From the NCBI GenBank assembly GCA_037952775.1, contig JBANAY010000003.1:23994001-24058000 (forward strand): a stretch of DNA of 64,000 bases. The letters run 5' to 3'. Below are positions 2,561-55,076 of the stretch, piece by piece. Source of the stretch: Clonostachys chloroleuca (taxonomy: Eukaryota > Ascomycota > Sordariomycetes > Hypocreales > Bionectriaceae). The translations under genes were made by a program, and so were the position numbers. The notes below the pieces were generated by a model. It searched no databases and had not been told where the DNA came from. It saw only the letters and a list, made by a program, of their open reading frames with translations. The stretch's first letter is position 1; every line of letters starts with the position of its first letter.

Positions 2561-5500
2561 TAAATACAGATAGACTGAACCTATATAATAAGCTGCTTTA
2601 AACTAAGAATTTAAATATATTATAAGTAATTAGAATATATAAGGGGGGAGGCCTTCTATAAGAGGCTATTCTATTCCCCTATCTATCTAAGCTATCTATT
2701 AATAATTAAATCTATCTATCTATCTAAACTAGCTAAGTTATTTAATTTTTTTTTATTTTTTTTATTTTATTCTCCTCTTTTACTCAGGTTTAGGGTATAT
2801 AGGAAAATAGTATCTAGAGGGTTAGAATTAAATATTAGAGAAATTACTCTTAAGTTTATTATTACTATATATTAGAATTAGATATTAGAGGAACTATCCT
2901 TAGATTTATTATTATTATTAGACCTATTAATACTCCTATAGATAGTACTATTATTATTATTAGGCTTTATAAATTAATAATAAATAATATAGTACTCTAA
3001 AAGAGGTTTAACCTCCTTAGAGATAATATTTTTAAAAATATAGCTAGAGCTAGATTCTAATCTATATTACTAATAGATAATTAAACTATTAAAAGTACTA
3101 TCTATAGTAAGATTATAAGCTATCTTCTAGATAGTACTAATATATATAACTAGAAGGTATACCTTAGTATACTTATAGAAAGATTTCCTAGTAGGTTTAC
3201 TAAGCTTAGTAAGAGCTTTATAAATAGTAACTAAGTTATATATAAAAGATATTAGAACTTTAGATATAGTAATATAAATATTACTACCCTTATTATAATA
3301 TATATACTATATTCTATTACTATTATAGTTAAAGTAATAACTATTACTTTTCCCTAAGGTAAGTAACTTAATATATACTATATATTTATTAGAATACTTA
3401 CTACTAATAAATATATTAACTAAGGAAGTAAGAAAAAGAAAGACTACTAATATTTATACTTAGTTAAAGTACTTCTTAGCTATATAATATTCCTATCTCT
3501 TAAGCTTTTTAAACTTCTTTTATATTCTTCTAACCTTAGCTTACTACTAGGCTAGTATACTTAATATTCTTTAGATTACTATATAAGCTTATTAATAAAA
3601 GTTTCTAAAACTAAGTATCTGAGTATATATAATTAATAACTATTTCCCTAGTTATACTATAGTAGGGTAGTATTATAGGCTTAGGGGAGGGGCTCTAAAG
3701 AGTAGATAAAAGAGAGAAGGAGGAAGGTATTATATCTCTATATTTAATTAGCTCTAAAATATATAAGGAGGGAGTAACTACTTATAGAGAAAAAAATAAT
3801 AAGTTAAAAGTTTAATTATATACTACTAAGATTAGCTATAAAACTATATTCTAGAGTATATATATCTCTATATATAGAAAGAGAATTAGAGTATAACTAT
3901 CCTATAAAATAGTTAGCTATAAAACTTTAATCTAAAATAGTAAGGATTATTATAGAGAGTATATATAATACTAGGGTAGCTATATAAAAAAGAAAAAGAG
4001 AAATATTATAGTAGTATAGAATAGAGTTTAATATAGATAGAGTATATATCTATAATTACTTATTACTAGGGGTAACTATAATAATAAGTAGGGAAACTTA
4101 ATAATAAAATATATATATATCCGGACTAATATATATAGTATACCTTTTTAATAAAGATATAAGGAATTAGAATTATATATATTTATTTCTTATATTTATA
4201 GAGATTATAAAGGGTCTATAATTATAAGAGCTATTTATATAGAATAAGAAAATAAAAAACTACCTATATTAGTATACTAAATACTACTGACTAGTAGTTA
4301 CTAGCTGGAAGCTAGAAGCAGAGTAGTTTACTTAGTTAGGACTGCTCTAGAACTGTATTTATAACTGGTTTACTTCTGTAGCTAGGATAGTAACTTAATC
4401 AATTACTTTTAACCTATCTACTCTATAGTATACGCTTTAGAAAAGCCTTCTAATATAGATTATATATTATCTAATCTTAGAATATACTCTTATTTATAGT
4501 AAAACTAATAAAAAAAATAGAATATTCTTAAGTTATTCTTCTTTCTTTAAATATTTCTTTTATTAATACTTATACTAAGTATTACTTTCTTTATTTTATT
4601 AAGCTTTTTATTTATTATTTATTTAGTTCTATTCTTTAATTTTAATATTAAAGGGTTCTATAGATAGTTTTTTTATTTCTTTTTACTAGTAACTATATTT
4701 AACTTTATATTCTTATTATTATTTTTTATTAGTTATTTCTAATTAATTAGTACTAAAAATATATCTAAGAGCTATTCCTACTTTTATATCTATCCTAAGA
4801 TTTATATTATTTATCTTAGTTTTTATTAGAATAAGTTTCTTATTATATTAGATTATAGTACTATTAAGACTATAACTATTATATCTACTTATTATTATAA
4901 ATTATTATTTTTATAATAGTATCTTTAGTTATTAAAGAGTTATTCTATCCTTCTAATATCTAATAAGATTTTAATTTCTATTAATTCTAATATAGATTTA
5001 TAAGAGTATCTCTCTACTCTATATAGCTAGTAAACCAGTTTATTAATAGATTTATATCTTATAACTATAGTAAACCTAGTATTACTTTATAGGTTCCTAG
5101 TAATACTAAGTTATAAATAATATTAAATTTCTATTCTTAGATTTTAATTATAAAATAATTAGTTTTAGAGTTAATAATCTTATTATTATATTTAAATTTT
5201 AAGCTTTTAATATTAGCTACTATATAAGTTTTTTCCTTCTTTTTCTATAGTAAGTAGAGTTATTTAATTACTACTAGTAAAATATAATTTTCCTATACTC
5301 TATAGTTAATAAATACTATAAGCTAGTTCCTCTTAATCTCTATTTCTATAAGAATATAAAGTAAGTTTCTTATTTTAATAGCTCCTAGGGTTTTCTAATC
5401 TATTATTAATACTATTCTATACTATAGCCCTATTATAAATAGTTTAGATTATTTTTTACCTAGTTAATTTATTATTTAAGTTTTTCTTATTTATTATTAT

Positions 5501-5869
5501 TCTTAAGTATTTATTTTAAGACTTTTTCTAGTATCTTAAGTACTTATAGTTTTAGAATAAACTATTAGAACTCTATTATCTATTCTTATAGTTTCTTTTC
5601 CTTAGAATATACTTTTCCCTATTCTCTTTTATTAGTAGAGATAATTCCTAGTTCTTCCTTATTATTATTTTCTTTACTAGTTATTAGGAATAATTATCCT
5701 TCTAGATAGTTTTTTTATAGCTTTTCCTCCTATAGCTATTATTATTAAAGATATAGTTTAGTAGTATTTATATTATTATTATTATATTTTACTAATTTTA
5801 ATACTTTTTACTTTATATCTAGATATATCTTATAGTTCTAGTTATAATATTATTTAATCTAGTTATTAT

Positions 5870-6380
5870 TATATATTAAAGAAGGCCCCTATATAGTAAT
5901 ATTATTAAGAAAGAGTTAAACTATATTAGGAATAAGGTCTATAAGAATCTAATTAATAATTTATATAAATTAAGCTACTGAATTTATTACTTCTTAAGGG
6001 AGTATATATATTTTATATAGTTTAATAGGTATTAAGAATATAGTTAAGTCCCTGCTTATTAGATTAAGAGTTATTTAATTATACTCTGAAAAGAAGTTAA
6101 TAAGTAATAGGATTTTATATATTATAAAGTTCTATAAGAAGCTATTTATACTAGGGGGAATAAAAGTATTCCTAATTATAAATTAGTTAATCCTAATTAT
6201 AGAATTAATAAATCTTATATTACTATTCTTTTTAATTATAAGGAACTAAGGGTTCTTATAGGATATATAAAACTCCTTAAGTACTTCTTTCTTAATATAG
6301 TTCCTTAGGATATCTATTACTTTACTTTCTAAACCTTTAGGAATAGGAATTAAACTAGCCTGCTATATCTTATATTTAAT
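5870..6380 (-). pseudogene. Ty3/gypsy-type reverse transcriptase relic
   Basis: Read on the minus strand from about 6380 downwards, the decayed frame gives a P-I-P-K-G-L-E segment, then I-K-K-E-V-L-K-E-F-Y, N-P-x-F-L-I-I-K-K and R-F-I-N-S, followed by S-R-D-L-T-I-F-L-I-P and L-P-x-E-V-I-N-S-V-A, and ending near N-N-I-T-I-x-G-P-S. This is the block order of fungal gypsy RT (E-V-L-x-E-x-x-S-P-Y-R-N-P-W-F-L-V-K-K, S-R-D-M-T-A-F, L-P-Q-G-A-T-N-S-V-A, D-D-V). The catalytic aspartates appear replaced, consistent with heavy RIP. RNase H and integrase should lie at lower and gag at higher coordinates, but I cannot delimit them. Confidence 0.6.
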
Positions 6381-8028
6381 AACCTGAATAACTTATAGTA
6401 GTACTACTATAGGGTTAATATAGCTATAATCCTTAAATATCCAGATTATTATCTTTTTTTAGTTATAAAGTATTTAAATAAATACTTCTAACTTCTTTTC
6501 TATTAAAAAACCTCTTACTTATAATAGAATAGTATTTAGTTATTCTTCTATAAGCCTAAAACCCTTTTTAATATCTAAGAATTTACTAATAATCTATTTA
6601 GGAAAAAGATATAATATATTAAGTATTAATAGAGCTTTAATCTATTTCTTCTCTTACTAATTAGTATTACTATCTAGTACTAAACTATTAGATAGAATAT
6701 TATTAAGAGAGTTAATTTTCTTATACTTTAGTTTATATATTATATTTATATTAATATTTAGTAAGTTAGTACCTCTACTAAGATATTTTTTAAAGAATTT
6801 TATCTTTTTCTTATAAGAATTACTTTATTTAGTAGCCTACTTATACTATTTATTATATATAGATAACTAAGTTCTTAAGATTTTTTAGAGAATAATTTTA
6901 GCTTTATTATTAGAGATAGGAATAATAATATCTCCTTTCTTAATTTCTATACTTATAATTCTATTAGTATCTTCTAGAGAGATATAAAATATTTAAAAAG
7001 GTTATTTAGGATTAGAATCTACTTAATTAAATAGTTTATTAGGTTTTTCTATTTCTTAGGGTTTTATATCTATTATTAATACAGAATATATACTAAGTTA
7101 TTCCTTAGTATAGAGAGCTATAATTACTTTTAGTATATCTAGATTCCTATAGTAAATACCTCCTGTAATAGTAGTTATATAGATACTATTAATAATAGCT
7201 TATATAAGCAGATTACTATCTCTATTTCTATAATTAAAGGAAATCTAGTAAAACCTAATAAAAGATATTCCTAAAATAAACTTAATAGATAATACTTTCT
7301 TACCCTTTATTATATAGATAATCTGCTTAGAGAATATACTTCTAAAGAATACCTTTATATAAGTCCTCCCTATTATCTTTATTATATAGTTTAAGAAGGA
7401 AGTTATAATTATATTAGGTATTAGATAGACTATTAGGTTGTACTCTTAGGCTATTTTAAGGGCTATAATATTTACCTATACCTCTGTATTAACTAGGGTA
7501 TTATAGACTTAACTATCTGCTCTTTATAGCTAAATAGATATATAGAGGAGGTCTTAGTAATCTTTAACTATCTATTCTTCTAGATAATCTAAGAGTATAT
7601 AGTTAATAAATATCTAGTTAGTCTGTATAGTTTCTTAAGGGTTTATAATAGCTTACTTCTAAGTCTATATCTTTTCTTATATATTAACTAAATTATATTC
7701 TACTTTATTAGAATCTAATTAATTAAATACTTCCAGATACTAGCTATAGTCTAACTTATATAGTTATAAAGTTATAAATTAATAAATAGTATTTTTATTA
7801 TTCTTTAAAAAATAATTCCCTATATTATTTTTAATTATATATCTATAAATCTTATTATATAACCCTTAGGCTACTATAACTTTATCTATAACTTATCTAG
7901 AACTCTCTAGATCTTAGATTTTAATTATATTAGCTCCAGTATTATACTTCCTAGATTAATATAATAGGATATTATTATTTAATATAGTATTCTTGATTAC
8001 TTATTTAGAGCTATATACTTAAATAAAG

Positions 8029-8895
8029 TTGTTGAAATTACAGTGGCCTACAAGGTGTATTAGGCCTTGAGACCGCTATAACTAGCAGCAGTGGAAATTT
8101 TAGCTTCTAACTTATAGCGAACACTCCTCTATAACTTAGTCAAACTTCACACTAGAAAGTCGGTTTATAGTGCATTTTATAGCGCAAAAGGATCTTATTT
8201 TGGTGAGAGGAACCGGAAAAATATACCAATTTCTCTCATAGGTCTACCGACTAAAAACTACTCTAAAACCCGCTACAGCAGCTTCCCGGGCCACTTTTGA
8301 TTTTCCGCAAAATTCATTACTATAGGAAATCTAAAAAATCGACTCACAACTACCAAACCATAAGATAGATATATATAACCTTTTTAAGACCCACTTTTAT
8401 CTGAAAGAGCTAGTTAAGCTGATCAGTTAAGTATAGATATTAGATATCTTATCTTTAAAGCTGAAAGAGATATCTAAGATCTAAGGTCTAGTCTAGGGTA
8501 GGTTGGTTATAGGGTAGCTTGGGTATAGGTTAGGCTACTAGAAGTTACTCAGATTTTTTTCCTGAATTTTCTAGACCCTTATTTAGGCTAATATAGCCTA
8601 ATAACCTATAAATAACGCTGCTGACGCTCCTAGCCCTAAAGAGGAACTGGAGCCTGCTAAGCCGTAGCGGTCATAGCGGCCTGTAGCCACTGACCCACAG
8701 TGGCTGCAACCGCTATTGGCTCGTGATCGTAGTCGCTATCGGATAGCGGTCTCAATCGCTATTGGCTAGCTGTTACAGGGGATAGCAATCGCTAACAGTT
8801 AGTGGTTGCGACCGCTAGAGGTTAGTGGTTGTAACCGCTAACTTATAGCGATACGGTCACTAACTTATAGTGGCTATAGTCTCTCAATTCAACAA
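8029..8895. mobile_element. 867 bp non-autonomous TIR element
   Basis: A GC-richer island inside the RIP block. The ends are imperfect inverted repeats: TTGTTGAAATT at the left, and a right end whose reverse complement starts TTGTTGAATT. AAG flanks both sides (8026-8028 and 8896-8898), compatible with a 3-bp target duplication. There is no coding capacity. The right part (about 8650-8890) has several imperfect palindromic units of the type AGCGGTTG-CAACCGCT separated by short spacers. The class is unknown; 3-bp target duplications occur in PIF/Harbinger elements, but that is only a hint. Confidence 0.55.
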
Positions 8896-9761
8896 AAGTA
8901 TTCTTCTATAAGGAGCTCCCTAAAGATAGAATTAAATTAGATAATTTCTAAGATCTTTAGAGTAATCTTACTACTCTTAATAGCTTTTATAACTAGTTAC
9001 TTTCTAGCTAGTTCTTACTCTATAACTTCTTTATATAGACTATTAGTTACTTTAGATACTTATAGAGAGCTATAATCTATTAGGCCCTTATATCTTATTA
9101 ATATACTCTTAGGTTTATACTATATAATATATAAGAAGCCTTCTTTATCCTACTTTCTATATTTTAGATTAGCTAAATTTATCTTAATAGTATAAATATA
9201 GTCTATTTAATTAAATAGTTCTAATTTATTATAATTTAATTTAATACTTAGATTAGCTAAGCTAATATAAGATATTATTATTAAGCCTAGTTTTTTAAAT
9301 CTACTTTCTCTTATTATTACTATTATATAGATTAGAAGATACTTATTATTTTCCAGAGTAGGGATCTTAAGAGTCTAATAGTTCCCTACTCTCTTTATAA
9401 TATAATCTATAGCCTCTTCTTCCTTCAGGGTAATTACCTATCTTATTAGATTAGAGTTATATATCTTTTTTATATACTAGGCTAGATTAGGATTATAATA
9501 GGGGAATTATTTTATATAATAAACTATAAGCCTTCTTATACTTAATATCTATTTATAGTAATTAACTAGGGCAGGGGGAACTTCCTCTCTCTTAGGTTCT
9601 AAATATAAGATACTAGCTAAGTATTTATAGTAGATAAACCCAGCTTCTTTATTAACCTTAAGATCTATATATTAATTAGGATAATAGTTAGATCCTCTAT
9701 AGTACTAGTATAAATTATTATAATTATAAGTTATTAGGGTATTAACTTCTATTAGATTTAT

Positions 9762-9936
9762 TGTTGGAAGGACTTCCTTAGCATATGCTGTTGGATAGGT
9801 TCTGTTGTATTCTGTGTATGTTCTTCTCTAGCTAGCTGACCTACGGGCCCGTGGCCCGGGGTTAAATAGAGGCTGGAGCGGTCACGTGGTTAGGCCACGT
9901 GATCGCAAGAGCCCTGACTAACTAGCTATCCCGACA
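9762..9936. mobile_element. Solo LTR, 175 bp
   Basis: Starts TGTTGG and ends CCGACA (inverted ends with one mismatch). It is flanked by a perfect 5-bp direct repeat TTTAT (9757-9761 and 9937-9941). It is GC-richer than its surroundings and keeps CpG and CpA sites, so it arrived after most of the mutation of the block. No internal retroelement sequence adjoins it, so it is a solo LTR left by recombination, or a very short non-coding element. Confidence 0.75.
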
Positions 9937-12145
9937 TTTATTTAATTAAATTCTCTATTATTAATTAATCTATCTTATATCTTAATTAAGTTTATATAAG
10001 TATCTCGGGAGTTTTACTTTATTAAGATTTAGATTTATAGTTAAACCTTAGTTATTTTTAAAGAGAAAGAGATTAAGATTTCTATCTTTTCTCCTATCTA
10101 TTATATAGAAATAGCTAAGTTATTTATTTAGGCTATTAGATTATTTATAGAAATCTCTATAGTTTTTTTCTAACTATCTTAAAGTTCTATAGGAGCTCTT
10201 TCTTAATAGGAAGGTAGTTCTAAGATCTATATTTATTTTAAAGCCTTAGTTTATTTAATTAGCAGGTCTTATAACTAAGTTATATACTACTCTTACTATC
10301 TGGCTTTATATAGGCTATTTTTATTATTAATTTATCTATAGTCTTTAGAGGTTTTAATTCAGTTTTAGATAAACTTAATAAGTATTTCCTAGAGGGTCTT
10401 ATATAGGAGGGAATAGAGTTCCTTTATAGTTAAACCCTTTCTATTTTAAACCCTATAGAATATCTCTAAAGATATTAATTTATAAAGGTTCTCTAACTAG
10501 CTTATAGATATCTCCTAAGTAGATCCTTAGTTTTTCTTCTAATAGTAATAATATTTAATTAGAGTATTTTTAATCTTATAGAGGTTATTCCCTAGTCTTA
10601 TCTTATTAATCTATTTAACTTCCTATATTAGGGAGATTATCTAATTATAATTAAGATATTAGTATTCCTTCTTAAGGATAATCTTAATATTATTCTAGTA
10701 GTTCTAATCTTTAATATAATACTTAACTCTTAGCTATTTATTATTAGAGATATTAAACTCTAGCTAAATAAGATAATACTTCTTTAATAAACCTCTTAAA
10801 TCTATTATATTATTATAGTTCTTAAGAAATAAGGTTATATTATAATTATTAAATTATTAGTTAATTATAAATATATAAGTAAAGGGGTTAATTTTCTTAA
10901 TAGTATATATTAATACTAATATAAGTTTACTCTAGGGTAATTTATCTTAATAGCTATTACTAGTTAGATTACTCTTAGTATTCTTAAATATTATTAAAAG
11001 TATCTAATTAAATAATTAAATTAGTTTTTATAATTAACTTTATTATAGAAGTTAGGAAAATAATAGAATAAATAGTAAGAAAAGAGATTATTTATATTTA
11101 CAGGATAGTATTATATTTCCCTATATTAATCTTTCTCCTAATAATATTAATTTAATTCCCTTTTCTTTTTTATCTCTTAATTAAGTTAATAGAAGGGATA
11201 GATAGTAATATTCCTATTTATTATTTAATTTCCTTTTAAATACCTAGAGTTATATAGTAATCCTTCAGCTCTTTAGGATTAGACTAGTTAAGAAATAATT
11301 AGCTTTTATTAATATTAAACTTCTTAATAATCTTTTAAAACTAATTAGAAAGTTAGAGTCTTAACTAAGGTTCTTAATTAATATATTAGTTAGTAGTTAG
11401 GGTTAAATATATATCTATAGTAAGGTATTTTTCCCTTCTTATATTTCTTACTTATAGGCTCTTATATATAGATTCCCTAGGAGAGGGTTCTTATAATAGC
11501 TAAAAAGTACTATATTTAGTCTCTTTTTACTTAATTACTTTAATCTATAGATTAAAGCTCTTAAGTTATTTAAAGTATAGTAGTTATATATCTCCCTACT
11601 AAGATCTCTATTTATATTAGGGAAAAATAAATAATACTATAGCTATTAGTAAGCCTAAAATACAGACTATTAACTATATAAAAATCTAATAACCTTCTAT
11701 AATAGCTATAAAAAGAAGGTTTTAAGTTTTATATATATTCTTAATTAATTAAATAGTTTATATTTATAGCTAGTTAATTAACCTATTATAGCTGCTATAA
11801 TATAGATAAAAGACTTATCTTTTAAAGAAGGGATTTTTAAAAGTAAAATAAAAAAGGGAAAAAAAGAATATTATTTTCTACAGATACTAAAAAATAGCTA
11901 ATTTATCTAATTTAGCCGGTTTAATAAGTGGGCCCCGACTTAATACTAATTTAATTTATATACTAGTAGATTATATTAGTTATAATCTAGGCTTTTATAT
12001 AATTTTTATTATACTACAATATAAGGATAGTAAGAGCTTATCTGCTACCCTGGAACACTAGAACGCTAAGCGAGCTAGCTTATCTTCTCTTAATATAGGT
12101 AGTCCCTATGTCCGTAGTGATCCGTGGCAAAAAAAAATGCCAATA

Positions 12146-13623: not shown

Positions 13624-16600
13624 CTATTCAAAATCAACATACATGGCCCGGATTCTCTCCTTCCACTCCTGAAACGTAATCACCTCGTCTTCGAGGCGCA
13701 CGCACGCTTCTGGCAGAGCATCCATGTCGGCTTTGTCAAATACCAGCAGCTTCGTAAACTCGTGACCGCCATCACAGCCCTGAACAGAGAGCTCTCCTGC
13801 TTGCAATTTGCGGTAGCATTCTTCATCGTACTGCATCCGTCCTCCTTCTGTCAGGCACATCCAAATGCCACTAAAGGAATTGCACAGGCGATCACAGCCT
13901 TCGCAGCGGAGAGCATGAACCGGCTGATACCAGGGATCATCGTTAACATCGTCTTCTTTCGGCTCAGTTCCCATATACCACCACATCTTGCCATCCGTGT
14001 CCTCTTCATCGTCACTATCACTCTTTTGGTCCCCCCCATCCCCTGTTCCGTTACTTCATTTGGCTCCCCTCCTCCTCCGTCTTTCGACGAGGTGGATCCT
14101 TCTTGGCCATCTCCCACGCCCTCTGATTTTACATCTTCGGCCTCGTCTTCCCATTCATACTTTGGCCGGTTGGCTTCTTTCTGTTTCCAAATATCTATCC
14201 TTCGTTTTCGGTCAAGCTTCTTCGCCTTGTGTGCCAGGTGCAGCAACATGCCATTAACATGAAGGTTGGGCATATCCCGCATCAAAGCAAAAACCATGTT
14301 GAGAGTCCACAGGGACAGGTCATCATTCGATAGGTCATCATCGGAGAGCATCACTAAAGCCTCGCGGACCCGTATTCTCGTCAATCTCTTCAAATGCAAA
14401 ATGTCCTTCCGCATCGCGAAATGGCGTGCGACACCCACCAGCAGGCTATCATGGCGTATGATGTGGTGCTCGAATTCTTCAAAGCAAGCTTCGATCTTTC
14501 TGTGGTACAACTCTTTGTCCCCGGCCGTGGTGGATTCGTTCAAGAAAATCTTAAGCCACACCGGGAGACAGATACCGACGGCTTGCAACCTCTGTTTATC
14601 GTTGGCAATCTTGAAATTCTCATCCCATACCTCCATGGCCGCTTTTTCCTTGCCTTCCATCTCAAGAAGAATACTGGCATGGTAAGACCTGAGATCGAAT
14701 AACTTCTTAGGATTCGGATCTGCTGCTATGGCGGTGTCGATGATGGCGTCAACTATATCAATTCGATCCATCACCTGGGCAGTGCGGGCAACGATACCCT
14801 GGAAGTTCTCAGATACAAAGCCCGTTTCGTCTAGCTTTTGATAAAAGAAGTTGCTGATAGTACCTTTCTCATGCTTAGCGTACCCTATAAGTTGCTCAAT
14901 GAGTTGGATGATGGCATCCCGGAGATGCATCTTATCATAGTCTTCAAATACTGGAGAGAATCCATTGAGGACGCCTTCAGACTGATCAATTTCGAGAACT
15001 GAAGAGTATGTCTTCACAGCTTCGTCAATTCTATCAGCTTGCCAATACTTGTTCCCAAGGTCAAACATGACGGTTGCCAGAATGACTCGATGGTTCTCCT
15101 CAGATAACCATTTTTTGTCAGCTTCGAGAGTAGATATTACGTTTTGTAAGAGTTTAATTGCCTCCTCGTTAGATTCGATTACCTTTGAAACAGCATAAGA
15201 TGCTCTCCAGTTCTTCGAGCCGCTGGCTACAGCTTTTTTTGCTCTCTCCAGTGCCATGGCAGACATGCCGTCGCCATGGAGGTAGATTAGGAGATCAGCT
15301 GCATAAGCGTCCCAAATTATTTCGTCCACTGGTCCCTCGATTACTGTTCGAGCATAATCTTCAACAAGGTGAAACATGTCAATTTGCGGCTCCCACACTT
15401 GAAAGGGTGATTGATCTGTTTTCTATCATTTCATGTCAGCTTTCGGTCAGTCTTTTGTCTATCAAGCGGGCTGAACTGACTTTGCAGAATATGGAGGATA
15501 TGAGTAGGTATGCCATCAAGGTGTCGTATTTGAGGGTGTCTCTTTGGAATATGTCCTTGGCAGCTCTCTTCATAGCCTCACCAAAGAGGACTGATACGCG
15601 ATCGGCTCCATCTTGCTTGAATGATGCAAGCAGTGGATGATCTTTAACGCGCTTGATGACGGCAGAATCGTTGAACCATTGTGCCAACTCATTCACAGCA
15701 TCATCTCTCAGTATCCAGTCTATCCATGCCATTGGTCGCTGGTAATTGTAACTGTCAAACTTGACCCGGCTGGACTTCTCTCCTCCCCCATTGAGACCCA
15801 GAAGTGAATCGGTGGCGTAACCCTCAGAAAAGAGCCGGACGAGCATGACCCCCAACTCTTCCAACAACTGTCTATCTGCCAAAGACCGATCCGCAGCCAC
15901 GAGATGTTTAAGGAGAGCATGCTGGGAGTACTCCAGCATCATCTCAGTCTTCTCATTGCGCGGTTCGACTAGGCATCGCAGGCAGCGAAGAGCAAGCATG
16001 ACTTGTACATTGTCCAAGTCTTGATGAATATAGACGCCTTCGCGCACGAGCTTTGATTCGAAAAATTCCTCGAATTTGAATTTTTGGTAGAGCTCTTCGG
16101 GACAGACTGTGCTAAGATAATGTCTGATAATCTTCACTTCGCCAGGTGTGATTTGCTGGCTGTCTAATACTTGTAGCTCGGAAGAGATTGATGTGTCTTT
16201 GTTGGGAATCTTCTCCCTAATTTCGTAGTTTTTGAATTCAATAAGGTTGCCGGTCATCTTAAAAATGGTGTACTTCGTTTCGATTTTGGCTCTGAGGGAC
16301 ATGAGTGACGAGCTGCTACCCCCCTAAGCCTAGCTCTAATGCTCCCTCCAAGGCTTCTGGGCTGAGTAGAAGTGATGCACTGTCGACCCATTTAATCAAT
16401 TCGTTGATTTCTTTAATCTCCTTGTTAGTTCTTGTCCGGTTTATGCTCTCTATTTCCGCTTCAAGTTGTTCCGAAAGAGTGCTGCCCGCAGACTCGAGAT
16501 GCGATCGAATCTCCTCAACATCGTCCGTCTTAGCAATGTTGTCAAGAACCCGATTCACTTGGTAATAGTCTCCCTCGGTCGACTCCACCAACGAATCGGT

Positions 16601-18205
16601 TATTTCTCTTCGGATTTGATTCACACCAGGGCGATTAGTCTCTTTCAGGATGTCCATCTGGTTCATCCGTAGCTTAACATAGGCCTCAAGATCCCTTCTA
16701 TTGTTGTGTTTCAGCACGATTTTCTCCACTTTGATGCCCCCTGCTTGGTGAATCTTCTGAAATGTTTCACTTGTTCCTGTTAACAGAATTCGTACACGCT
16801 TTCCAAAGCCCCTGTTCGTAAATTCCTGGAAGATGTTGATGAATTCGTCAATCTTGTCCTGAATTCCATCAAGGACAACGAAGAGTGCAGCATCTATTTC
16901 TTCAAGGTCTTCATTCTCGAAGAAAATCCGGGTCCAAGTCTCCAGTGCACTGCCGAAGAATTTGCTCCGATCACAGATTCCAGCAACACTTTTCATGAAG
17001 GGCTCATCGTCCAGAGCAAGCTGGCATATCACATACTTGGAAAGAGACAGAGCGTCGGAATAGTCAGTCACCTCCATAAAGTCGTGAGCAACAATGGCCC
17101 TGCTGCTGAGCTCCTTGATGGGGCCTGTCTTTCCCTTTTTGATTTGGAGAATCACGTTAGAAGCAAGAAAGGTCTTTCCAGTTCCCTCACCCCCCTGTAG
17201 CCCCAGAATTGGACTTGTTCCCTTTACCCAGGAACGAAATCTTGTATCTTCCATGAGCCACTCGCCACTTCCCGGGCCGATTTCAGTCCTGTATTTCTTC
17301 CATGCCAATTCCCACGGCGGGGGGATATTGGAATCCAGTATAGACCGATCACAGTCTAGGGTCTTGATAATGGATTGTTTCCAAGCTGAAATTTCCTTCT
17401 CCCGCTTCATCTGCGTCTTGTCCTCCAACAAACTATTATGCACTTTTCGCGTTAATACCAGACCATCCCTCGAATTCTCGGCAGCTTCGTTACTTGACTT
17501 CCATGTCTGAGCGGCTACTAAGCCGCGCTCCTTGTCAATCAGGCTTTCCATGGCGCCCAGGAGGCCTTGGACGCTATCGTCGTTGAGGAAGAGCTGCTTC
17601 ATGAAAGCAGCCAACTTGTGCCTTTTCTGCCTCAATTGAAGGGAGCGGTCGCAAATATCGACAAACAGCTGCAGATGACGGCAAGCCACCCTGGTCAATT
17701 TTGCATCCATGCTCGCCTGCGTGTAGTAACTAAGTCGGTCCAAAAACTCGGTACATTTCTCCAACAGGGAAGCCAGGCTGTCGAAGATACCCTCATACCC
17801 TTTCCAGGCGCTGATCACAAAGGTCAGTGCATTGTAGCAAGTGTTTGCCGGAGCAAAGACCTATATTTGAAAAGACGCCGAGTGAGCTCAGCTGTTTGCA
17901 TAAAATAAGACGAAGTCTTCACTTACAGCAGACACATGAGTAGTGACGATGCCGCCAACAGTCTCAATGCACTGAAGGGTCCGTTTGAAAATGGTTTGTA
18001 TGGTGGCGTACTTCTCCACCGACTTTTTGTCTTTGGCTTGTGCTTGGCCTAGTTGGGCCAGAACGGCGTCAATGTCAAGGCCGGGCTGGATTTTGGAGGC
18101 GTCGCCGCCGGCCATCTGGATCACGCGTAGTTCGACCCGCTTCCATGCTTGACTTATTTCCGTTTCCACACCTGTATCCGGGGATAGGCTATCTGATTGT
18201 TTCAT
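13624..18205 (-). pseudogene. Goodbye-NACHT STAND (NLR-like) protein, three frame breaks
   Basis: Fungal NLR-like signalling ATPase. The frame starts with ATG at 18205. Intron 1 is 17862-17926 (GTAAGT donor, TATAG acceptor); intron 2 is 15416-15476 (CTGAC branch site, ACAG acceptor). Exons total about 1,484 codons. The N-terminus (to about residue 200) matches the Goodbye domain (F-A-P-A-N, I-S-A-W-K-G-Y, F-L-D-R-L). A NACHT P-loop G-G-E-G-T-G-K-T lies near residue 315 and a Walker B-like F-V-V-L-D-G about 80 residues later. Helical TPR/ARM-like repeats follow, then a C-terminal Cys/His module ending G-H-E-F. The frame is broken three times: a 4-T run at 17819-17822 (fits with 3), a 6-G run at 16319-16324 (fits with 5) and a 7-G run at 14031-14037 (fits with 8). 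No in-frame stop exists between breaks, so either recent loss or assembly error. Such proteins act in heterokaryon incompatibility and xenorecognition. Confidence 0.8.
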
Positions 18206-19415
18206 TGTCTTGATGCAAGCAGAAGGTGTTTATATCCCACAGACAGTTCCTTTCAATTTCGATTTCGGGCGGCGTGAGGTTTGACACCTATAGGAGCGAG
18301 AGAAAAGAGATAGATGCGCCAAAGCTAAATAAACAAGAAATGAACAACATCCTGGGGCCGGAAATTTATATGGGGTTCTCTTACCTCATCGTCAGCATTG
18401 GTTACAAGGGCTGTTATTGGTGGTTCGTAGGGACAACTGTAAGCACTAATTGGCCTGCAATCTATTAAGTAGCATATCCATGCTCGAGGCCTTGCTTGCA
18501 TAACCGAATGAGGTAGGTGAGAAACCTTTTCCGAACTATATTTGTGCAATCTAACAATCATAGCGGAGTAAAGGTTGGCGCAAGAGAATCGTCAAAGATC
18601 TCCACGAGGCAATCTCCCAATGGCGGTTTGAACCAGGATGGAAGGGACGATACCAATTGAACCAGCAGTATATGTAAGATAATGGAATGTACAGTATAGG
18701 GGATTATCTACCGTCTTGGCGTATGAATTCCTGAAGCATGTATCGAACTTGTAGCCTGAGTCTGATACGCGTAGTTTGTAACAAAGGGGCTTAAACGCAC
18801 TAATCAGGTTCAACTAAACAAGGGTTAAGAAGAAGGTAACTAACAAAAGGGCAATTACTCTACGCCTTAGATAGGCACTTCGGCGGTATAAAATTATAAA
18901 AACGATACGGGATTTGATTCGCCCTCTACAAGAAAACAGGGATGAGGACTTTTATGAATAATCTGAGATAATACGGTACCCGCTGATTATCACTGCCGCT
19001 TCTCTTGCCCTTATTGCTATGTTTTTTTTTTCTTTTTCATCGCTGCACTTGTTCGCTCCTCCGCCCACGACCGGAAGGACAGAAGCCAAGCTTCAAAAAG
19101 GTGCCCTCAGCCCTATAAATCGCGTTCTGGCTAGGTATGAATCCATTTCCATTGATTCAGCCGCACTTACAAGCGGAAATCCCTTAGACCATTGGTTCCC
19201 TACCAAGAAGCTCGTATTCAGCGCCTTCACATTTTGCACCTGCTTACCATGCTCAGACGGATGAGTAATTCCACGAATGTGAGGCGACACAAGTCAGCAG
19301 CTACCTTCTATTCCCTTCTGGCAAGTACAGCAGGCACTCACAGAATTGCGGTTGACTTTACATAGAAATCACGCTTAATTGTATCGTGGGGAATATAAGA
19401 AGACATAACCAAAAA
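18206..19415. other. Intergenic, upstream of the STAND gene
   Basis: About 1.2 kb without a credible gene. Open frames here are short, lack family patterns and are not supported by splice sites. It should contain the promoter of the leftward STAND gene. I see no repeat ends, tRNA or clear regulatory site. Confidence 0.5.
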
Positions 19416-35258: not shown

Positions 35259-36815
35259 ATGGGTCTTACTGACGCGGCTTCTCCGCCCTTCTTAGCGGGT
35301 GCGCTCAATACCCTCACAGCTGCTTACGCGCTCTTTTAGCAATTATATCGCCTCTACGCAGTATTTCCGGACCCTGGCACAGTCGTTTCACCTCCATCGT
35401 GCTCAAAGGGTACATATTGGCGGGTCGACGCATCCATTATGTCGACTCGCTACACAGAGAATATGGGACTGTCGTTCGGCTATCTCCCGACGAAGTAGCC
35501 ATTAGCAACCTCGAAGCTTTTTCCCAGATTCACAAGGTCGGCTCCGGATTCATAAGGTCTGCTTGGTATGATAAACTATGATTCGGCCGGGAGCCTGGTA
35601 TTTTCTTGATGCGCAATCCTCACGAGCACGCTGTCTGAAGACGACTCTTTGCACGTGCTTTAGCAACGGCTCGCTTCTGGCGCACCGGGAGCCGGAGATC
35701 AGACAGAAAGCTGAGCTCGCCGTAATAAAGATCAGAGAGGACGCGCAGGCTGGTAGCGCCGATATTCTAAAGTGGTGGACTCTCATGGCAACTGATGTTG
35801 TTGCTCACCTCTCGTTTGGAGAATCATTCCGCATGCAAGAATTGGGCAAGGTATAGCCTTTCTGGTTGATCATTATTAGTCTGAGATCTGACAGTTTTCA
35901 AAGCAAACACCTTATATTGACGCAATTCAAGCTGCCCTTCTCTGTGGAGTCGTACGAAACGAGCTGTCTTGGTTCTATCCAATCTCAAGACGTCTTCCTT
36001 TCAAAAGTACCAGGAACATAATGAACGCCGACAACATCGTTTTTGCGCAGTGCTAATGATGGGCTCAGCACGGTGAATATATTCAGTCAAATGCTTGGCC
36101 AGGCGGATGGCCAGGAAAAGACAGAAATAACAGATATTGCCGTTCGAACTGAGGCAGGGAATCTGATCGTTGCCGGCTCTGATACCACGGCAGTCACTTT
36201 GACCTATCTTATCTGGGCAGTTCTGAAGCAGCCTCAGCTTCAAGCCTCGTTGGAGCTCGAAGTTAGTGATCTAAGTCCCGACCTGACTTCTGAAGAACTG
36301 AAGAACGCTCCGCTTCTGAACAGTGTTCTTGAGGAAACTCTGCGGTTGTATGGTGCCGCACCAGGCGCACTTCCACGTGTTGTACCGGAAAAGGGGCTAT
36401 CAGTGTGTGGCTATTTCATTCCCTCGGGCATAGTTGTTAGTACTCAAGCATACACACTTCACCGTGACTCTACCATCTTTCAAGACGCACAGAGGTATAC
36501 TTGTTCATCTTCTAGCCGTATCGGGCCTAACCTTGTATCTGTATACTAACATTCTGCAGGTTCGATGGCTACAGATTTATAGACAAGTCACAAATGACAG
36601 CAGTTCAAAAGACAGCCATGTCGCCTTTTGGTGCAGGCTCTCGCATCTGCATCGGACTTCATCTGGCTTGAATGGAGCTACGACTTGGAGCGGCATTATT
36701 CTTCCGTGAATGTCGAGGAGCCAAGCTCAACACTGAGATGAATGATGAAATGATGGAAATGGATAATAGGTTCTTGATTGCTCCAAAGGGCCACTGCTGC
36801 AAAATCCAGTTGTAA
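35259..36815 (+). pseudogene. Cytochrome P450 monooxygenase, decayed
   Basis: ER-anchored haem monooxygenase of the kind found in fungal secondary metabolism. ATG at 35259; an in-frame TAG (35337-35339) stops it inside the N-terminal anchor. Readable blocks in changing frames: Y-V-D-S-L-H-R-E-Y-G-T-V-V-R near 35440; D-V-V-A-H-L-S-F-G-E-S near 35800; an intron at about 35850 (GTATAG...CTGACAG). The I-helix A-G-S-D-T-T-A follows near 36175; the ExxR helix E-E-T-L-R-L near 36335; an intron with donor at about 36496 and acceptor before 36561; and the haem loop F-G-A-G-S-R-I-C-I-G near 36640. A TGA follows the haem loop where Arg is expected (CGA to TGA). At least two frame breaks in the first half and the stops make it non-functional. 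It lies next to the gasdermin-like gene. Confidence 0.8.
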
Positions 36816-37057: not shown

Positions 37058-37888
37058 TCATTCAGTCTCGATGCGTATCAAAAGAGTCTCGCCCCCAGAC
37101 GCATTAATTCTATCCCATTTTCCCTCAAGAGCCTCCTCCGGCATTGGCACGGACTCGACTTCAATAGTATCATCATCGTCTTCCTCATCCCTACCCCGCT
37201 CAACTGATGTCCAGCGGGGAGATTTGGAGAGCCGCAAGGCGTCGAAAGTCTTACTAGACAACCACCGATGCTGGACCTTGCGATACTGGAGGGCGCAAAT
37301 CTGTTCACCGGGCGCCGTGAAATTGGTGCGCACGTTGTTGGTTCGGTAATTACTAGCCTGCATCGAAGGCTTAAAAACGCTCCCCAAAGGACCCAACGCA
37401 GCCAACGAGAGGCTGGTGGGGACGTGAGTCTTGCCGTGGGTATTTGTTCCGGAAACGATCTGCTGGGCAATGCGGGCATTCGTGACAGTGTGGAAGCCCA
37501 CAATCATGAACATGTCGTTGTCCCGGTCCACCTGCCTCTCGATCCAGGTCTTGGTCGCCAGAAAATCTGTCGCCTTGATGAACCACTCGTCCGAGTTGTT
37601 GAGCACATAGGTTCTGACATGGTCTACGGTAATCTCCACCTCCACCTTGGCTCGCCTGGCAAATCCCACTGACAGAAGGGACGTGAGAGCGGTTGTGAAG
37701 CCAATGTCATTTTCTTTACTATTCAACCCGATGAATCCTTCGCGGAGGGTTATAATGGGCTCTGGTGCTTCAGTCCATGAGGGGTCGTGATATCCCTGAT
37801 GTGGATGATCAATGTTGGTAATGAAACGGCCCAGCTTGACGGGGTCTTGCGGTAACAAGAGATCCGGGATAATGACGCTGAGTGACAT
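37058..37888 (-). CDS. Candidate gasdermin-like (RCD-1/HET-Q1 type) protein
   Basis: An intact intronless frame of 276 residues. It starts with a short beta-prone N-terminus followed by a K-L-G-R-F-I-T-N pattern. Later it has a strand-rich core (V-E-V-E-I-T-V-D; D-M-F-M-I-V-G-F-H-T-V) and a strongly acidic segment near residue 235 (E-E-D-D-D-D). No signal peptide or transmembrane helix. I infer a gasdermin-like identity from three things: length, remembered pattern similarity to fungal proteins of that group, and position beside a divergently transcribed TPR-CHAT protease gene. Fungal gasdermins are known to cluster with CHAT or subtilisin protease genes and to be cleaved near the C-terminus to release a pore-forming domain. 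The family call is not proven; otherwise it is a conserved fungal protein of unknown function. Confidence 0.5.
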   Translation of the reverse strand: MSLSVIIPDLLLPQDPVKLGRFITNIDHPHQGYHDPSWTEAPEPIITLREGFIGLNSKENDIGFTTALTSLLSVGFARRAKVEVEITVDHVRTYVLNNSDEWFIKATDFLATKTWIERQVDRDNDMFMIVGFHTVTNARIAQQIVSGTNTHGKTHVPTSLSLAALGPLGSVFKPSMQASNYRTNNVRTNFTAPGEQICALQYRKVQHRWLSSKTFDALRLSKSPRWTSVERGRDEEDDDDTIEVESVPMPEEALEGKWDRINASGGETLLIRIETE

Positions 37889-38250
37889 ATTGCGAGTCGT
37901 GAGCAGAGAAGGGATTCAGAAAGAAATGAGATCTCGAGAAGAATAGAGACGGCCGGTGCATTCAAGGTGGGATGTACAGTACCTTATGCGAGAACTATTC
38001 AGGATCAAGTGTGTGGTTAGAGCTCGCAAAGTGTCGTGCCCCTGCTCTGTATGACAACCTGGTGTAGCAAATAAGCCATTAGCCGTCAGCATACATGTAG
38101 TTACCTAATTAATAATTTGGAGTCGAGGTCCGGACATTGCGCCATTTAATTATTCTATGCTCAACTGAGGTTCTGCAACTGTAGTCACTGAAAAACAACC
38201 ACCACGCTATAAACAGTCCTCCCACTGCAGAAGTGGCTGGGCTGGTAACG
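37889..38250. promoter_or_regulatory. Divergent promoter between gasdermin-like and TPR-CHAT genes
   Basis: 362 bp separate the two start codons, which point away from each other. The space is enough for a shared bidirectional promoter and too short for another gene. I see no strong TATA or operator motif. Shared control is inferred only from the arrangement. Confidence 0.4.
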
Positions 38251-41200
38251 ATGGAGTCCAGCAACCCACCGGGACAGCACAAGATCTTTGGGGGAGATCT
38301 GCCCGCTTTCCTATCGCGGATCACGCTGGATCCCTATGGTGCTTACAGGCGTACCGGTCAAATCGATCATGTCGACACGGCAGTCCTCAGTGCCCAGCAG
38401 GCCGTCGCCAATACCGCAAATAATAATCCAAATCGTGCAGGCAGATTGTGCAACCTGGCAATCATGCTGGAAAGCCGATATCAGCGGACTGCGGTCATAA
38501 GCGATCTTAGAGAAGCCGTTAGTGCGGCTCAGCAGTCAGCCCTGATCACGCCAGAGGACCACCCAGACCGTGCAGGTAGGTTGAGCAACCTGGCGAATTA
38601 CCTCGAGGACTATTATAAGCGGACTGGAATGGTGGATGACCTCGATGGAGCAGTTGATGCAGCTCGACAGGCAGTCGCAGCCACGCCAATCCAACATCCG
38701 AACTGCGCTGGCAGGCTGAACAACTTGGGGATGGTGCTCGAGACTCGGTTCGAGCGAACCAAAGTGATGGATGATCTCAAGGAAGCCATCAATGTGGGTC
38801 GACAAGCAGTCGCTGCCACGTCTAATAATCGCCTGCTTGAATAACCAAGCCAGAAGGCTCTATTGTCTATATACATATACTGGGGCGCTGCGCGACCTTG
38901 AGGTAGCGGCGGATTTGGCTAGGCGTGCGGTCGCGGCTACACCTGATAGTCATCCTGATCGTGTGGGTTGTTTGAACCACCTAGGAAACATTCTCGAGAG
39001 TTGGTATAAAGCTACCGGTTCGATGAAGCACCTCGAGGAAGCCATCAATATAGCCCAGCAGGCCGTTGTCATTGCGCCAGACAATGACTCGGACCGAACA
39101 GCATGTCTTATCAATCTGGGAAACAAATTTGTTCTTCGATACGAGAAAAGCGATGCGATACGCGATCTTGACGAAGCGATTGACATGGTCCAAGAAGCAG
39201 TCGCAGTGACATGTAAAGACCACCCAGACTACGCAAGCTACCTAAATAATCTAGCAAGCAGACTAAGCCGTCGTTTCAACCGGACCGGAGAGGTCACTGA
39301 TAGCGAAAGAGCAATCCATACAGCTCGAAAACTACTTGAAGCAGTTCCCCAAAGCCATCCAGACCACGCGGGTTGGTTGAGAAACCTAGGGATAATGCTT
39401 GAAAGCCGATATAGGCAACTGGGGGTAATGGACGACCTGGAGGAGGCGATTAGCGTGACACGGCAAGCTGTTGCAAATACGCTTGCCAATCACCTCTTTT
39501 ATGCAAGCTATTTGAATAATTTATCAAACAAGCTTCAGCGCCGTTATGAGCGCACGGAAGAGATGAATGACCTCCAGGAAGCGATTGGCCTGGCTCGGCG
39601 CCCAATTGAAGCCGTGGCCCCTGATCATCCAGACCGACCAGGTTACTTGGATAACCTAGGAAGCAAGCTCGAGAGCCTGTATGAGCACACCAAAGAAATG
39701 AGCGACCTAGAGGCAGCAATTGATGCGTCTAGACAGGCAATTTAGCCACAGCCATGCCTATAAATCATCTTGACCACTTGGGTCGCTTGAACAACTTAGG
39801 GAGCAAGCTTTCGAGCCGATATGACCGAACCGGAGTGATGGGAGACCTCAAGGAGGCGATTGATCTGGCTCGGCAGGCAGTTGCGACCATACCCAAAGAT
39901 CATCCAGACCGACCGGGTTACTTGAACAACCGGGGACTCGAGCTCGAGAGACGGCACAAACAAACCGGGTCGTCCGACGACCTCAAGGAGGCCTGCGACT
40001 CCTTCATCGAGGCTTGGGAGACTCCCTCGGCTATCCCATTTCATCGCATCAGGTCGGCCACTCACTGCATCAGGCTACTCGTCCTCCAAGGCAAAGCAAA
40101 GGCCGCCGCCGAGATTGGCACAGGAGCCATTGGCCTGCTCCCTATGGTCAACACGAAACTCCTTAGCCGCACCGATCAGCAGTATGTTGTGTCGACTTTT
40201 GCAGGTATAGCCGCGAACACGTGCGCGCTATTACTAGCAATGGGCAAGGTCAAGGATGCTCTGCTCGATCTTGAACAAGGCCGGGCAGTCATTCTTGGCC
40301 AGCTGATGGATGGCCGGAGTGATATAGCTGGTTGGGCGACGAAAAAACCCAAACTCGCTCGACGATATGAGAAGCTCAGAAACAAAGTAAACTTCCCAAT
40401 ACATATCCAAGAACAGGGGAATGGCAGGGGATCGAGCACGGCAAGAGCGCATCCAATCCATCTCTGATCTAAACGACTGCATAAGCAAGATTAGAAAGAT
40501 TCCAGGCTATGAGCGCTTCTTACGCTGCCAGACAACAAAACAGATGAAGGAGTGCGCTAAGGGAGGCAGCATCGTGATCATCAATCTTACAGAATTACGC
40601 AGCGATGCCATTATTGTCTCGCCTACTGTCATCAAGAGAATTCATCTCCCGGACCTATCAGCAGATGAGGCGACGACGTGGCTCAACACGTCTTGGACCG
40701 GTCGTAGGGCAGAACGGGCAAGGAGGAATAAAGAATACGCCATTTATCTATCCTGGCTCTGGAAGACCTGCGTCAAAGTGGTTCTGGATGCTCTCCGTGC
40801 TCTGCACAAGCCTACGGTATGCGAGCCCTTCAGAGTATGGTGGATCGGGAGTGGACTCGCCAGCTCAATGCCTTTCCATGCAGCAGGTATCCATGATCCC
40901 GGCTCGACAGAGACTTCGTACCACCAGACAATCTCGTCATATACGCCCTCCATCAAGGCTCTCGCCCATGCCCAATGGAAGGAACGGGGCTGCGAGGCGT
41001 CAAGCGACGCCCTCCTCTCAGTGACGATGCCGACAACGCCCCATATCGGTGGCAAGGCACAAGAAATGGAAAATGTTATTGAGCTGAGCAAGGGGCATAT
41101 GCCAGGGGAGGGCATGGTGCAACCCAGCGTCGGCCAGGTGTTGTCCCATCTTGAGGGATGCTCAGTTGCTCACTTTGCTTGCCACGGAACGACAGATCCT

Positions 41201-41662
41201 TTGGACCCGTCAAAGAGTGGCCTCATATTGCAGCGGCAAGGACAGGTTTCCACTGCCAACGACGAGCAGGATGGATGCCGCGAAACAGCTGGGCTCATCC
41301 AAGACAGGCTCACCGTCATAATGATCTCGGAAATGGACCTAAAGCATGCCAAGCTCGCCTATCTATCCGCGTGCTCAACCGCACAGAACAGGGTTGAGAA
41401 CCTGTCAGACGAGGTGATTCACGTGGTGAGCGGCTTTCATGTGGCAGGCTTCTCTCATGTGGTTGGCTGCCTCTGGCCGTCGAATGACAGGGTGTGCGTA
41501 GAGGTGGCGAGGCTCTTCTATTCCTCGCTCTTTGCTCAGGGCTGGCGCAAGTGGAACGATGGGAAGGTCGCGTGCGCTCTTAGAGAGGCGTTGATGGTTG
41601 TCCTGGCAGATGACATGACAATGCCCCTCAATTGGGCGCAGTACGTCCATTACGGGATGTAG
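38251..41662 (+). pseudogene. TPR-CHAT protease, three frame breaks
   Basis: A long TPR array of about 42-residue units (pattern H-P-D-x-A-G-x-L-N-N-L-G, then R-Y-x-R-T-G, then D-L-x-E-A-I, then A-R-Q-A-V) from 38251 to about 39970. An alpha-helical linker follows, then a caspase-like CHAT domain in the open 40421-41662 frame. The catalytic His (F-A-C-H-G near 41180) and Cys (L-S-A-C-S-T-A near 41380) are both present. ATG 38251 is chosen because the upstream in-frame codon is GTG. Frame breaks: near 38830 (part of a TPR unit missing), at 39740-39743 (one base short in a T run), and near 40415-40421 (one base extra). None has usable splice sites. CHAT proteases cut partner proteins; the neighbour on the left is the natural candidate. 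The breaks suggest a pseudogene, or a gene with assembly errors. Confidence 0.75.
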
Positions 41663-54120: not shown

Positions 54121-55076
54121 TGTGATCTTCCCACCACTTACAGCTGGCAGTCAACTGGTGCGTTGGCTGAGCCGGCCGAAGGGTGGTTCAGCCTCAAAGA
54201 TTTTACTATAGTACCATATGACGGTGAACATCTCGTCTATGCAAAGATTTTACTATAGTACCATATGACGGTGAACATCTCGTCTATGCAACCAATAGCA
54301 ACGAACAGGGTTTTGCATCGCTTGGATTCAGTCCCTTCGCTGATTTCTCTGAAATGGCCAGCGCTACTCAAACCGGCATGAGTCCCGCCACTGTCGCACC
54401 CACGCTCTTCTACTTTAGCCCTAAGGGCATCTGGATTCTTGCGTACCAATGGGGAAACTCTCCTTTCTCCTACATGACCTCCCAAAATCCCGCCGACGTG
54501 GGTGCATGGTCAGCTCCGGAGCCGTTATTCACTGGTACCATTGCCAACTCTGATACCGGCCCCATCGACCAGACTCTGATTTCTGACGGAGTGAGCATGT
54601 ATCTCTTCTTCTGCGGTGACAATGGCGTTGTTTATCGAGCAAGCATGGCACTGGAAGATTTCCCTGGCAATTTTGGTACCGAATCTACCATTGTGTTGAG
54701 CGATACGAAAGAAAATCTTTTCGAGGCAGTTCAAGTCTACTCTCTTCAAGGGCAAAATAAGTATCTTATGATTGTCGAGGCTATTGGTAGTGTCGGGCGC
54801 TACTTTCGCTCGTTCATAGCTGATAGCTTGGATGGAGAATGGATTGCCCAATCTGGGTTTGAGGAGAATCCATTTGCCGGCAAGGTCAACAGCGGCGCGA
54901 CTTGGACTGACGACATAAGCCACGGAGAGCTGATTCGTACGTCGGCTGATGAGACATTTCCCGTGGACCCTTGCAACCTTCAGCTCCTCTATCAAGGAAG
55001 AGATCCCGTGGAGGAAGAACCACCAGTGGACTATGGTGCGCTCCCCTACCGACCTGGTCTCCTGTTCTTGGCTTAG
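54121..55076 (+). pseudogene. GH62 alpha-L-arabinofuranosidase broken by a 47-bp duplication
   Basis: A secreted enzyme removing arabinose from arabinoxylan. From 54121 the mature N-terminus reads [13 protein letters not shown], then W-F-S-L-K-D-F. A perfect 47-bp tandem duplication (54195-54241, 54242-54288) then shifts the frame and adds a stop. After it, the rest of GH62 is open to 55076: [27 protein letters not shown] (the catalytic Glu region); [31 protein letters not shown]. The upstream ATG/signal peptide part is also damaged (an ATG near 54053 meets TGA within 10 codons). Clearly non-functional. Confidence 0.85.
54195..54288. repeat. 47-bp tandem duplication inside the GH62 gene
   Basis: Two adjacent identical 47-bp units (54195-54241 and 54242-54288), no mismatch seen. 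Not a multiple of 3. It is therefore recent. Confidence 0.95.

What the first reader, a model, noticed from the sequence alone, without database searches (positions are those of the whole stretch)
37058..41662. Divergent pair of a gasdermin-like candidate and a TPR-CHAT protease
Seen: an intact 276-residue frame and, 362 bp away on the other strand, a TPR array ending in a CHAT domain with catalytic His (F-A-C-H-G) and Cys (L-S-A-C-S). Known: fungal gasdermin-like proteins (RCD-1, HET-Q1) cluster with CHAT or subtilisin protease genes and are cleaved to trigger cell death. Inference: this is such a module, with the effector intact and the protease carrying three frame breaks. If real, an uncoupled effector without its activator is unusual.
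Basis: partly seen in the sequence, partly recalled or inferred. Interest (0 to 1): 0.85.

Follow-up and report, generated by a model that had tools for sequence, protein, structure and literature searches.

The report
Fungal gasdermin beside a broken protease
A biocontrol fungus carries what looks like a pore-forming cell-death protein next to the protease gene that should switch it on, and that protease gene is broken here while close relatives and a second copy in the same genome keep theirs whole; the kind of pair is already known, but comparison suggests a testable cutting site.

Summary
The window lies in Clonostachys chloroleuca Cc878, a mycoparasite. The 276-aa ORF 37058-37888(-) is intact. 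No sequence search links it to gasdermins, but models of it and of a 38%-identical paralogue both match gasdermins first, the fungal RCD-1 on top. The opposite gene (38251-41662) is a TPR-CHAT protease with His and Cys kept and three frame breaks. Orthologues in C. byssicola and C. rosea are whole, and the genome has a second, intact divergent pair. Six of 20 homologues on contigs of 8 kb or more share a contig length with a CHAT protein. Such two-gene clusters are described, so this is a new member of a known kind whose activator is probably lost. New lead: the core/tail junction carries [DE]xxR, the separase-type motif, in 37 of 41 aligned rows. The assembly is Nanopore-only, so two single-base breaks need resequencing; the one of about 14 nt is hard to blame on base calling.

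The parts
37058..37888 (-). Gasdermin-like protein, 276 aa, intact
   Evidence: fold
37199..37888 (-). Predicted pore-forming core (residues 1-230) with the long strands 126-144 and 187-210
   Evidence: matches to RCD-1 span residues 7-270
37190..37207 (-). Residues 228-233 SVERGR: conserved [DE]xxR at the junction of core and tail, candidate cleavage site after R233 (inference)
37061..37189 (-). Acidic C-terminal tail (residues 234-276), candidate inhibitory peptide (inference)
   Evidence: part after residue 230 acidic in 40 of 41 rows of A2 with 30 or more residues there
37889..38250 (.). Shared 362-bp intergenic stretch between the divergent genes
38251..41662 (+). TPR-CHAT protease gene with three frame breaks
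38251..38835 (+). Piece 1, TPR repeats, same start as both intact orthologues
38830..38840 (+). Break 1: about 14 nt shorter than the orthologous stretch (inferred from protein)
38836..39742 (+). Piece 2, TPR repeats
39739..39748 (+). Break 2: single-base shift (inferred from protein), longest run nearby 3
39742..40419 (+). Piece 3, last TPR repeats and linker
40410..40420 (+). Break 3: single-base shift (inferred from protein), longest run nearby 4
40421..41662 (+). Piece 4, CHAT domain, 413-aa open frame
41183..41185 (+). Catalytic His codon (FACHG)
41372..41374 (+). Catalytic Cys codon (LSACS)

Best explanation
A fungal gasdermin/TPR-CHAT two-gene cell-death module whose protease half has been inactivated in this strain. 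In the intact module (inferred from described fungal pairs) the TPR array senses a signal, the CHAT protease cuts the gasdermin between its core and its short acidic tail, most likely after R233, and the freed core inserts in the plasma membrane and kills the cell. Here the gasdermin frame is whole while its own protease cannot be made as one protein. The protein should therefore stay silent unless cut by another protease: the intact paralogous TPR-CHAT of the same genome, or one supplied by a fusing strain. Shown: the two genes, their order, the breaks in the given sequence, the intact copies and the conserved junction motif. Supported by models of moderate confidence: the gasdermin fold. Inferred: cleavage, the site, pore formation, silence.
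Confidence: 0.8

Rival explanations
1. The protease gene is whole in the organism and all or most breaks are errors of a Nanopore-only assembly; the module is ordinary and working.
For: Nanopore R9.4.1 reads, Canu and Racon, no short-read polishing mentioned (whole text). A neighbouring NLR-like gene has apparent breaks in G6-G7 runs. Two of the three breaks look like single-base shifts.
Against: The first break is about 14 nt. None of the three lies in a run of 5 or more. 16 of 21 other CHAT genes examined keep open frames of 800 aa or more, one of these with a stop inside the match; at the rates this allows, three breaks in one gene have probability 0.001 to 0.004 (rough and biased, since real pseudogenes are mixed in and long frames were counted). 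Excess residue change in the window lineage. The reported QV is 45.75.
Confidence: 0.17
2. An effector-only allorecognition haplotype (compatible with the best explanation): the broken protease is a null allele kept in the population, and fusion with a strain holding the intact protease cuts the gasdermin and kills the fused cell, as het-Q1/het-Q2 does.
For: The het-Q1/het-Q2 idiomorphs and a 'pseudogenization' route to allorecognition are described (PMC12881547, PMC10197012, passages). A. fumigatus hetB has a CHAT protease allele against an idiomorph with only a short predicted protein (PMC11138114, passages). Intact orthologues exist in sister species.
Against: No population data could be reached. 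Proteases of such modules are thought to be gated by a sensor, so fusion alone need not activate them. Intact alleles were seen in other species only, not in other C. chloroleuca strains.
Confidence: 0.2
3. A dying module (also compatible with an inactivated protease): both genes are drifting and the gasdermin frame is intact by chance.
For: At the protease's break density no break in the gasdermin has probability 0.48. A P450 gene just beyond the gasdermin's 3' end also reads as broken by an in-frame stop (own reading; domain hit).
Against: A homologue differing in 2 of 276 residues is intact in other data; catalytic His, Cys and the junction motif are all kept.
Confidence: 0.3

Closest known systems
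Podospora anserina gasdermin/TPR-CHAT two-gene cluster (Clave et al. 2022, not held; seen only through passages of PMC12881547 and PMC10197012)
   Same: A fungal gasdermin gene next to a TPR-bearing CHAT protease gene; the review says that the protease activates the gasdermin
   Different: In the window the protease is broken; cleavage has not been shown for this branch
HET-Q1 / HET-Q2 of P. anserina
   Same: Gasdermin with a short C-terminal inhibitory piece; HET-Q1 is likely cut at residue 238, here the candidate is 233; the effector can lack its protease in the same haplotype
   Different: HET-Q2 is a subtilase, the window partner is a CHAT protease; allorecognition not shown here
RCD-1 of Neurospora crassa
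   Same: Best fold match (8jyz, 8jyy)
   Different: RCD-1 is activated by its antagonistic allele, not by cleavage; the window protein has an acidic tail and a protease neighbour; 9-16% identity in the aligned structures
Bacterial TPR-CHAT of Craspase (Csx29)
   Same: TPR-CHAT architecture and separase-like catalytic dyad
   Different: Csx29 has Lys at the separase site that reads P1 Arg, and Craspases cut at non-Arg, non-conserved sites (PMC9729208, PMC11106740, passages); the window CHAT has Glu nearby and its partner a conserved [DE]xxR

Membership tests
Fungal gasdermins (fGSDM) | Gasdermin pore-forming fold | tested here: met
   Two models; the best Foldseek rows (33 and 28) and VIA rows (21 and 20) are gasdermin entries, RCD-1 first. 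Models of moderate confidence
Fungal gasdermins (fGSDM) | Sequence match to known gasdermin profiles or entries | tested here: inconclusive
   None found: Pfam, PF04598 in the genome, PDB by sequence and by profile (profile rows all above E 0.5). Not treated as defining, since RCD-1 itself is described as a distant homologue (PMC10989679 passage)
Fungal gasdermins (fGSDM) | Gene clustered with a protease gene within 10 kb (about 80% of the family per reviews) | tested here: met
   Window (362 bp), paralogous pair, third gene beside an S8 protease; six shared contig lengths, indirect
Fungal gasdermins (fGSDM) | Short C-terminal inhibitory piece removed by proteolysis | tested here: inconclusive
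   Short acidic tail and conserved junction motif seen; removal not testable here
Fungal gasdermins (fGSDM) | Membrane pores and cell death | not testable with these tools
   Needs expression or liposome assays
TPR-CHAT proteases | TPR array followed by a CHAT domain | tested here: met
   pieces searched apart
TPR-CHAT proteases | Catalytic His and Cys | tested here: met
TPR-CHAT proteases | One continuous reading frame (needed for a working enzyme, not for descent) | tested here: not met
   Three breaks; filed as a broken member
HET-Q1/HET-Q2 allorecognition system | Subtilase partner | tested here: not met
   Partner is CHAT; not filed here. A separate S8-paired gene lies at C3:27049111-27049944
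HET-Q1/HET-Q2 allorecognition system | Idiomorphic haplotypes in a population | not tested
   No strain DNA reachable

The most novel reading that the evidence does not exclude
Fungal TPR-CHAT sensors read the same ExxR code as separase: the gasdermins of this branch carry a conserved separase-type site between pore core and acidic tail, and the CHAT has an acidic residue (E361) near the place that in separase reads the P1 arginine. At this locus the cutter has been lost, leaving a primed effector-only haplotype that a paralogous or fused-in protease could fire.
Probability: 0.3. Interest if true: 0.72.

Novelty: new member of a known kind. Interest (0 to 1): 0.5.

Why it matters
It shows a gasdermin/caspase-like module with one half broken, beside an intact paralogous module in the same genome and intact protease orthologues in sister species. 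That bears on the published proposal that some fungal self/non-self cell-death systems arise by pseudogenization of older immune pairs (PMC10197012, passage). The conserved [DE]xxR junction gives a concrete and cheap test of how fungal CHAT proteases choose their gasdermin; two library searches on this point listed three papers in all, each on CRISPR-type TPR-CHAT, and the primary fungal paper is not held.

Tried and rejected
Introns as the cause of the breaks: rejected, since frames switch within a few bases, too short for introns, and orthologous protein runs straight across. Other folds: no non-gasdermin entry came near the top; cholesterol-dependent cytolysins and MACPF proteins appear lower. 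Reading E361 or D356 as the exact counterpart of separase D2151: not settled. hhalign (probability 52) aligns D356 with the Asp after LWDVT of this fungus's own separase. The separase Asp that lies 41 residues after its Cys (the spacing of D2151 from C2110 in Chaetomium thermophilum; C2110 is recalled) is 4 residues further on in that protein, while E361 is 5 further on, so the match is only approximate. Residue 361 is acidic in 136 of 165 CHATs, gap in 5. A coupling between residue 361 and the partner's motif: suggestive only. The paralogue has Lys361 and its gasdermin no strict motif, but Lys stands in 9 of 165 rows (two of them the same protein) and the partners of the others are unknown. 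Shared contig length is indirect evidence of linkage and is that of the longest contig of a cluster; one more match (5,026,707 bp, P0005) was left out as uninformative, and the 2.4-Mb match is weak. Only the best 120 of 680 and 120 of 1332 CHAT hits were listed, so counts are lower bounds. No full-length C. chloroleuca orthologue of the window CHAT appeared among those rows; weak, since gene calls are incomplete. Telomere repeats in the first 10 kb of the contig that holds the paralogous pair: none found with one pattern. The sigma-70 promoter scan does not apply to a fungus. The relative-rate test has no gasdermin counterpart, because no protein named C. byssicola was among the 46 gasdermin hits. 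In the structure paper on human separase the terms sought for the arginine pocket gave no passage. Rows dropped: A2 leaves out 4 of 47 rows of A1 (P0040, P0044-P0046); A3 leaves out 11 of the 46 homologues; one search used the first 22 of 41 rows; one search used pieces trimmed at the breaks; motif and tail counts are on the 43 rows of A2, the window and its near-twin P0001 included, and rows are related, so they are not independent.
Full report
WHERE IT IS. The window is G000:C3:23994001-24058000 in a 59,374,895-base, four-contig genome. A CHAT protein annotated as Clonostachys chloroleuca V2G26_002330 lies on a contig of 37,472,460 bases, the length of C3, and the genome note for C. chloroleuca Cc878 gives four contigs, 59.38 Mb and N50 37.47 Mb (PMC11256822, whole text). 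The organism is a biocontrol fungus.

THE OBSERVATION. The 276-aa ORF is intact. The opposite gene starts at an ATG (38251) shared with its orthologues and stops at 41662. Searched piece by piece it has TPR repeats and a CHAT domain at 2.7e-30. His and Cys are at codons 41183 and 41372. Against intact relatives the frame changes three times, near 38835, 39742 and 40410-40420: a loss of about 14 nt and two single-base shifts, sizes that I infer from orthologous protein.

DOES IT TRAVEL WITH CHAT PROTEASES? Yes. The genome has a second pair: gasdermin homologue (282 aa, C3:15593-16441, +) and an unbroken 960-aa TPR-CHAT (C3:12288-15170, -), divergent with a 422-bp gap. Its CHAT is the window CHAT's closest match in the genome, 54% identical (48% in the tblastn) against 29-39% in the other 20 of the first 22 rows, so the two pairs look like copies of one module. 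Outside this genome no DNA could be fetched, but listed contig lengths agree between gasdermin and CHAT proteins in six cases: 142,273 (both C. rosea), 513,327 (both F. solani), 2,386,716 (both Sodiomyces alkalinus), 20,936, 18,253 and 10,864. That is 6 of 20 gasdermin homologues on contigs of 8 kb or more, a lower bound because only the best 120 CHAT rows of each search are listed, and indirect evidence only.

IS THE PROTEASE REALLY BROKEN? Orthologues are whole: C. byssicola 1148 aa (92, 80, 92 and 89% identical to the four pieces) and C. rosea 1149 aa (72, 73, 80 and 77%). With C. rosea as outgroup, the window sequence has 51 residue changes of its own against 28 in C. byssicola (p=0.013), as expected after loss of constraint; piece 2 alone shows no excess (16 against 15). 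Against this stands the Nanopore-only assembly, and an NLR-like gene at 13624-18229 shows two apparent breaks in G runs of 6-7, a usual place for such errors (the error habit is recalled). The CHAT breaks are not in runs of 5 or more, one is about 14 nt long, and 16 of 21 other CHAT genes examined have open frames of 800 aa or more, which makes three errors in one gene unlikely (0.001 to 0.004, rough and biased). I put inactivation at about 0.8. That the gasdermin frame is intact is weak evidence that it is kept: at the protease's break density the chance of no break in it is 0.48.

HOW IT LIKELY WORKS. Reviews state that about 80% of fungal gasdermin genes cluster with protease genes, 17-19% with CHAT (the base differs between reviews), that a TPR-CHAT protease activates its neighbour gasdermin in P. 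anserina, and that HET-Q1 loses about 5 kDa from its C-terminus, likely at residue 238 (PMC12881547, PMC10197012, PMC10989679; passages and one section; the primary paper, Clave 2022, is not held). The window protein has a short acidic tail: the part after residue 230 is acidic in 40 of 41 rows. At the junction, residues 230-233 read [DE]xxR in 37 of 41 rows ungapped there, R233 is kept in 39 of 41, and the stricter [SDT]xExxR occurs in 24 of 42 rows in that segment against 0.014 expected per segment from the cores, relatedness ignored. All six gasdermins with a shared contig length have ExxR. Separase cuts after ExxR (PMC6858450, passages; D/ExxR in PMC4626109, passages). TPR-CHAT resembles separase, but bacterial Csx29 has Lys in place of the Asp that reads the arginine (PMC9729208, passages), and Craspases cut non-conserved sites (PMC11106740, passages). 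The window CHAT has Glu361 near that place, acidic in 136 of 165 CHATs, though the alignment to the fungus's own separase is off by one residue there. Against the rule: the paralogue's gasdermin lacks the strict motif, the rows are related, and conservation of R233 could be structural. I hold the separase-type site at about even odds and the whole novel case lower.

WHAT IT MEANS. Without its protease the gasdermin should be silent, or be fired in trans by the intact paralogous CHAT or by a partner strain. Loss of parts of such pairs belongs to the published 'pseudogenization' route to allorecognition (PMC10197012, passage), and a CHAT gene against an allele without it acts as hetB in Aspergillus fumigatus (PMC11138114, passages). 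Whether strains of C. chloroleuca differ at this locus could not be tested. No paper in the held library holds both words Clonostachys and gasdermin.

VERDICT. Observation confirmed; interpretation supported, with the warning that 'effector without activator' is not rare. New member of a known kind, with a broken partner and a testable cleavage rule.

Noticed in passing
window 13624-18229 (-): NLR-like gene (NPHP3_N hit, weak TPR hits, Cys-rich C-terminal stretch by my reading) split by two apparent frame breaks that both lie in G runs of 6-7; probably Nanopore errors.
   Followed up: partly
window 35299-36815 (+): Cytochrome P450 gene (Pfam hit in 36043-36546) that by my reading has an in-frame stop near 36670, just beyond the gasdermin's 3' end; may be a pseudogene.
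   Followed up: partly
window 1-12000: Very AT-rich block (GC about 0.20, one 2-kb step at 0.33) without ORFs of 100 aa; the second gasdermin/CHAT pair also sits between AT-rich stretches near the start of contig C3.
   Followed up: partly
L040:1480-2316 (-) and 2659-3282 (-), i.e. C3:27049111-27049944 and upstream: A third, distant gasdermin-like gene (278 aa, acidic tail, no ExxR at the junction) beside a Peptidase_S8 gene: possibly a HET-Q1/HET-Q2-like pair in the same genome.
   Followed up: partly
P0040 (metagenome protein, 483 aa): Gasdermin homologue with about 200 extra N-terminal residues, named nucleoside phosphorylase by its source; no Pfam hit at 0.01 here. Possibly a fused sensor-effector.
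   Followed up: partly
G000, many places: At least 20 CHAT-domain genes in this genome, a few with stops inside the match; a large family.
   Followed up: no
window 54195-54291: Perfect tandem duplication of a 47-bp unit (2.1 copies, 100% match).
   Followed up: no
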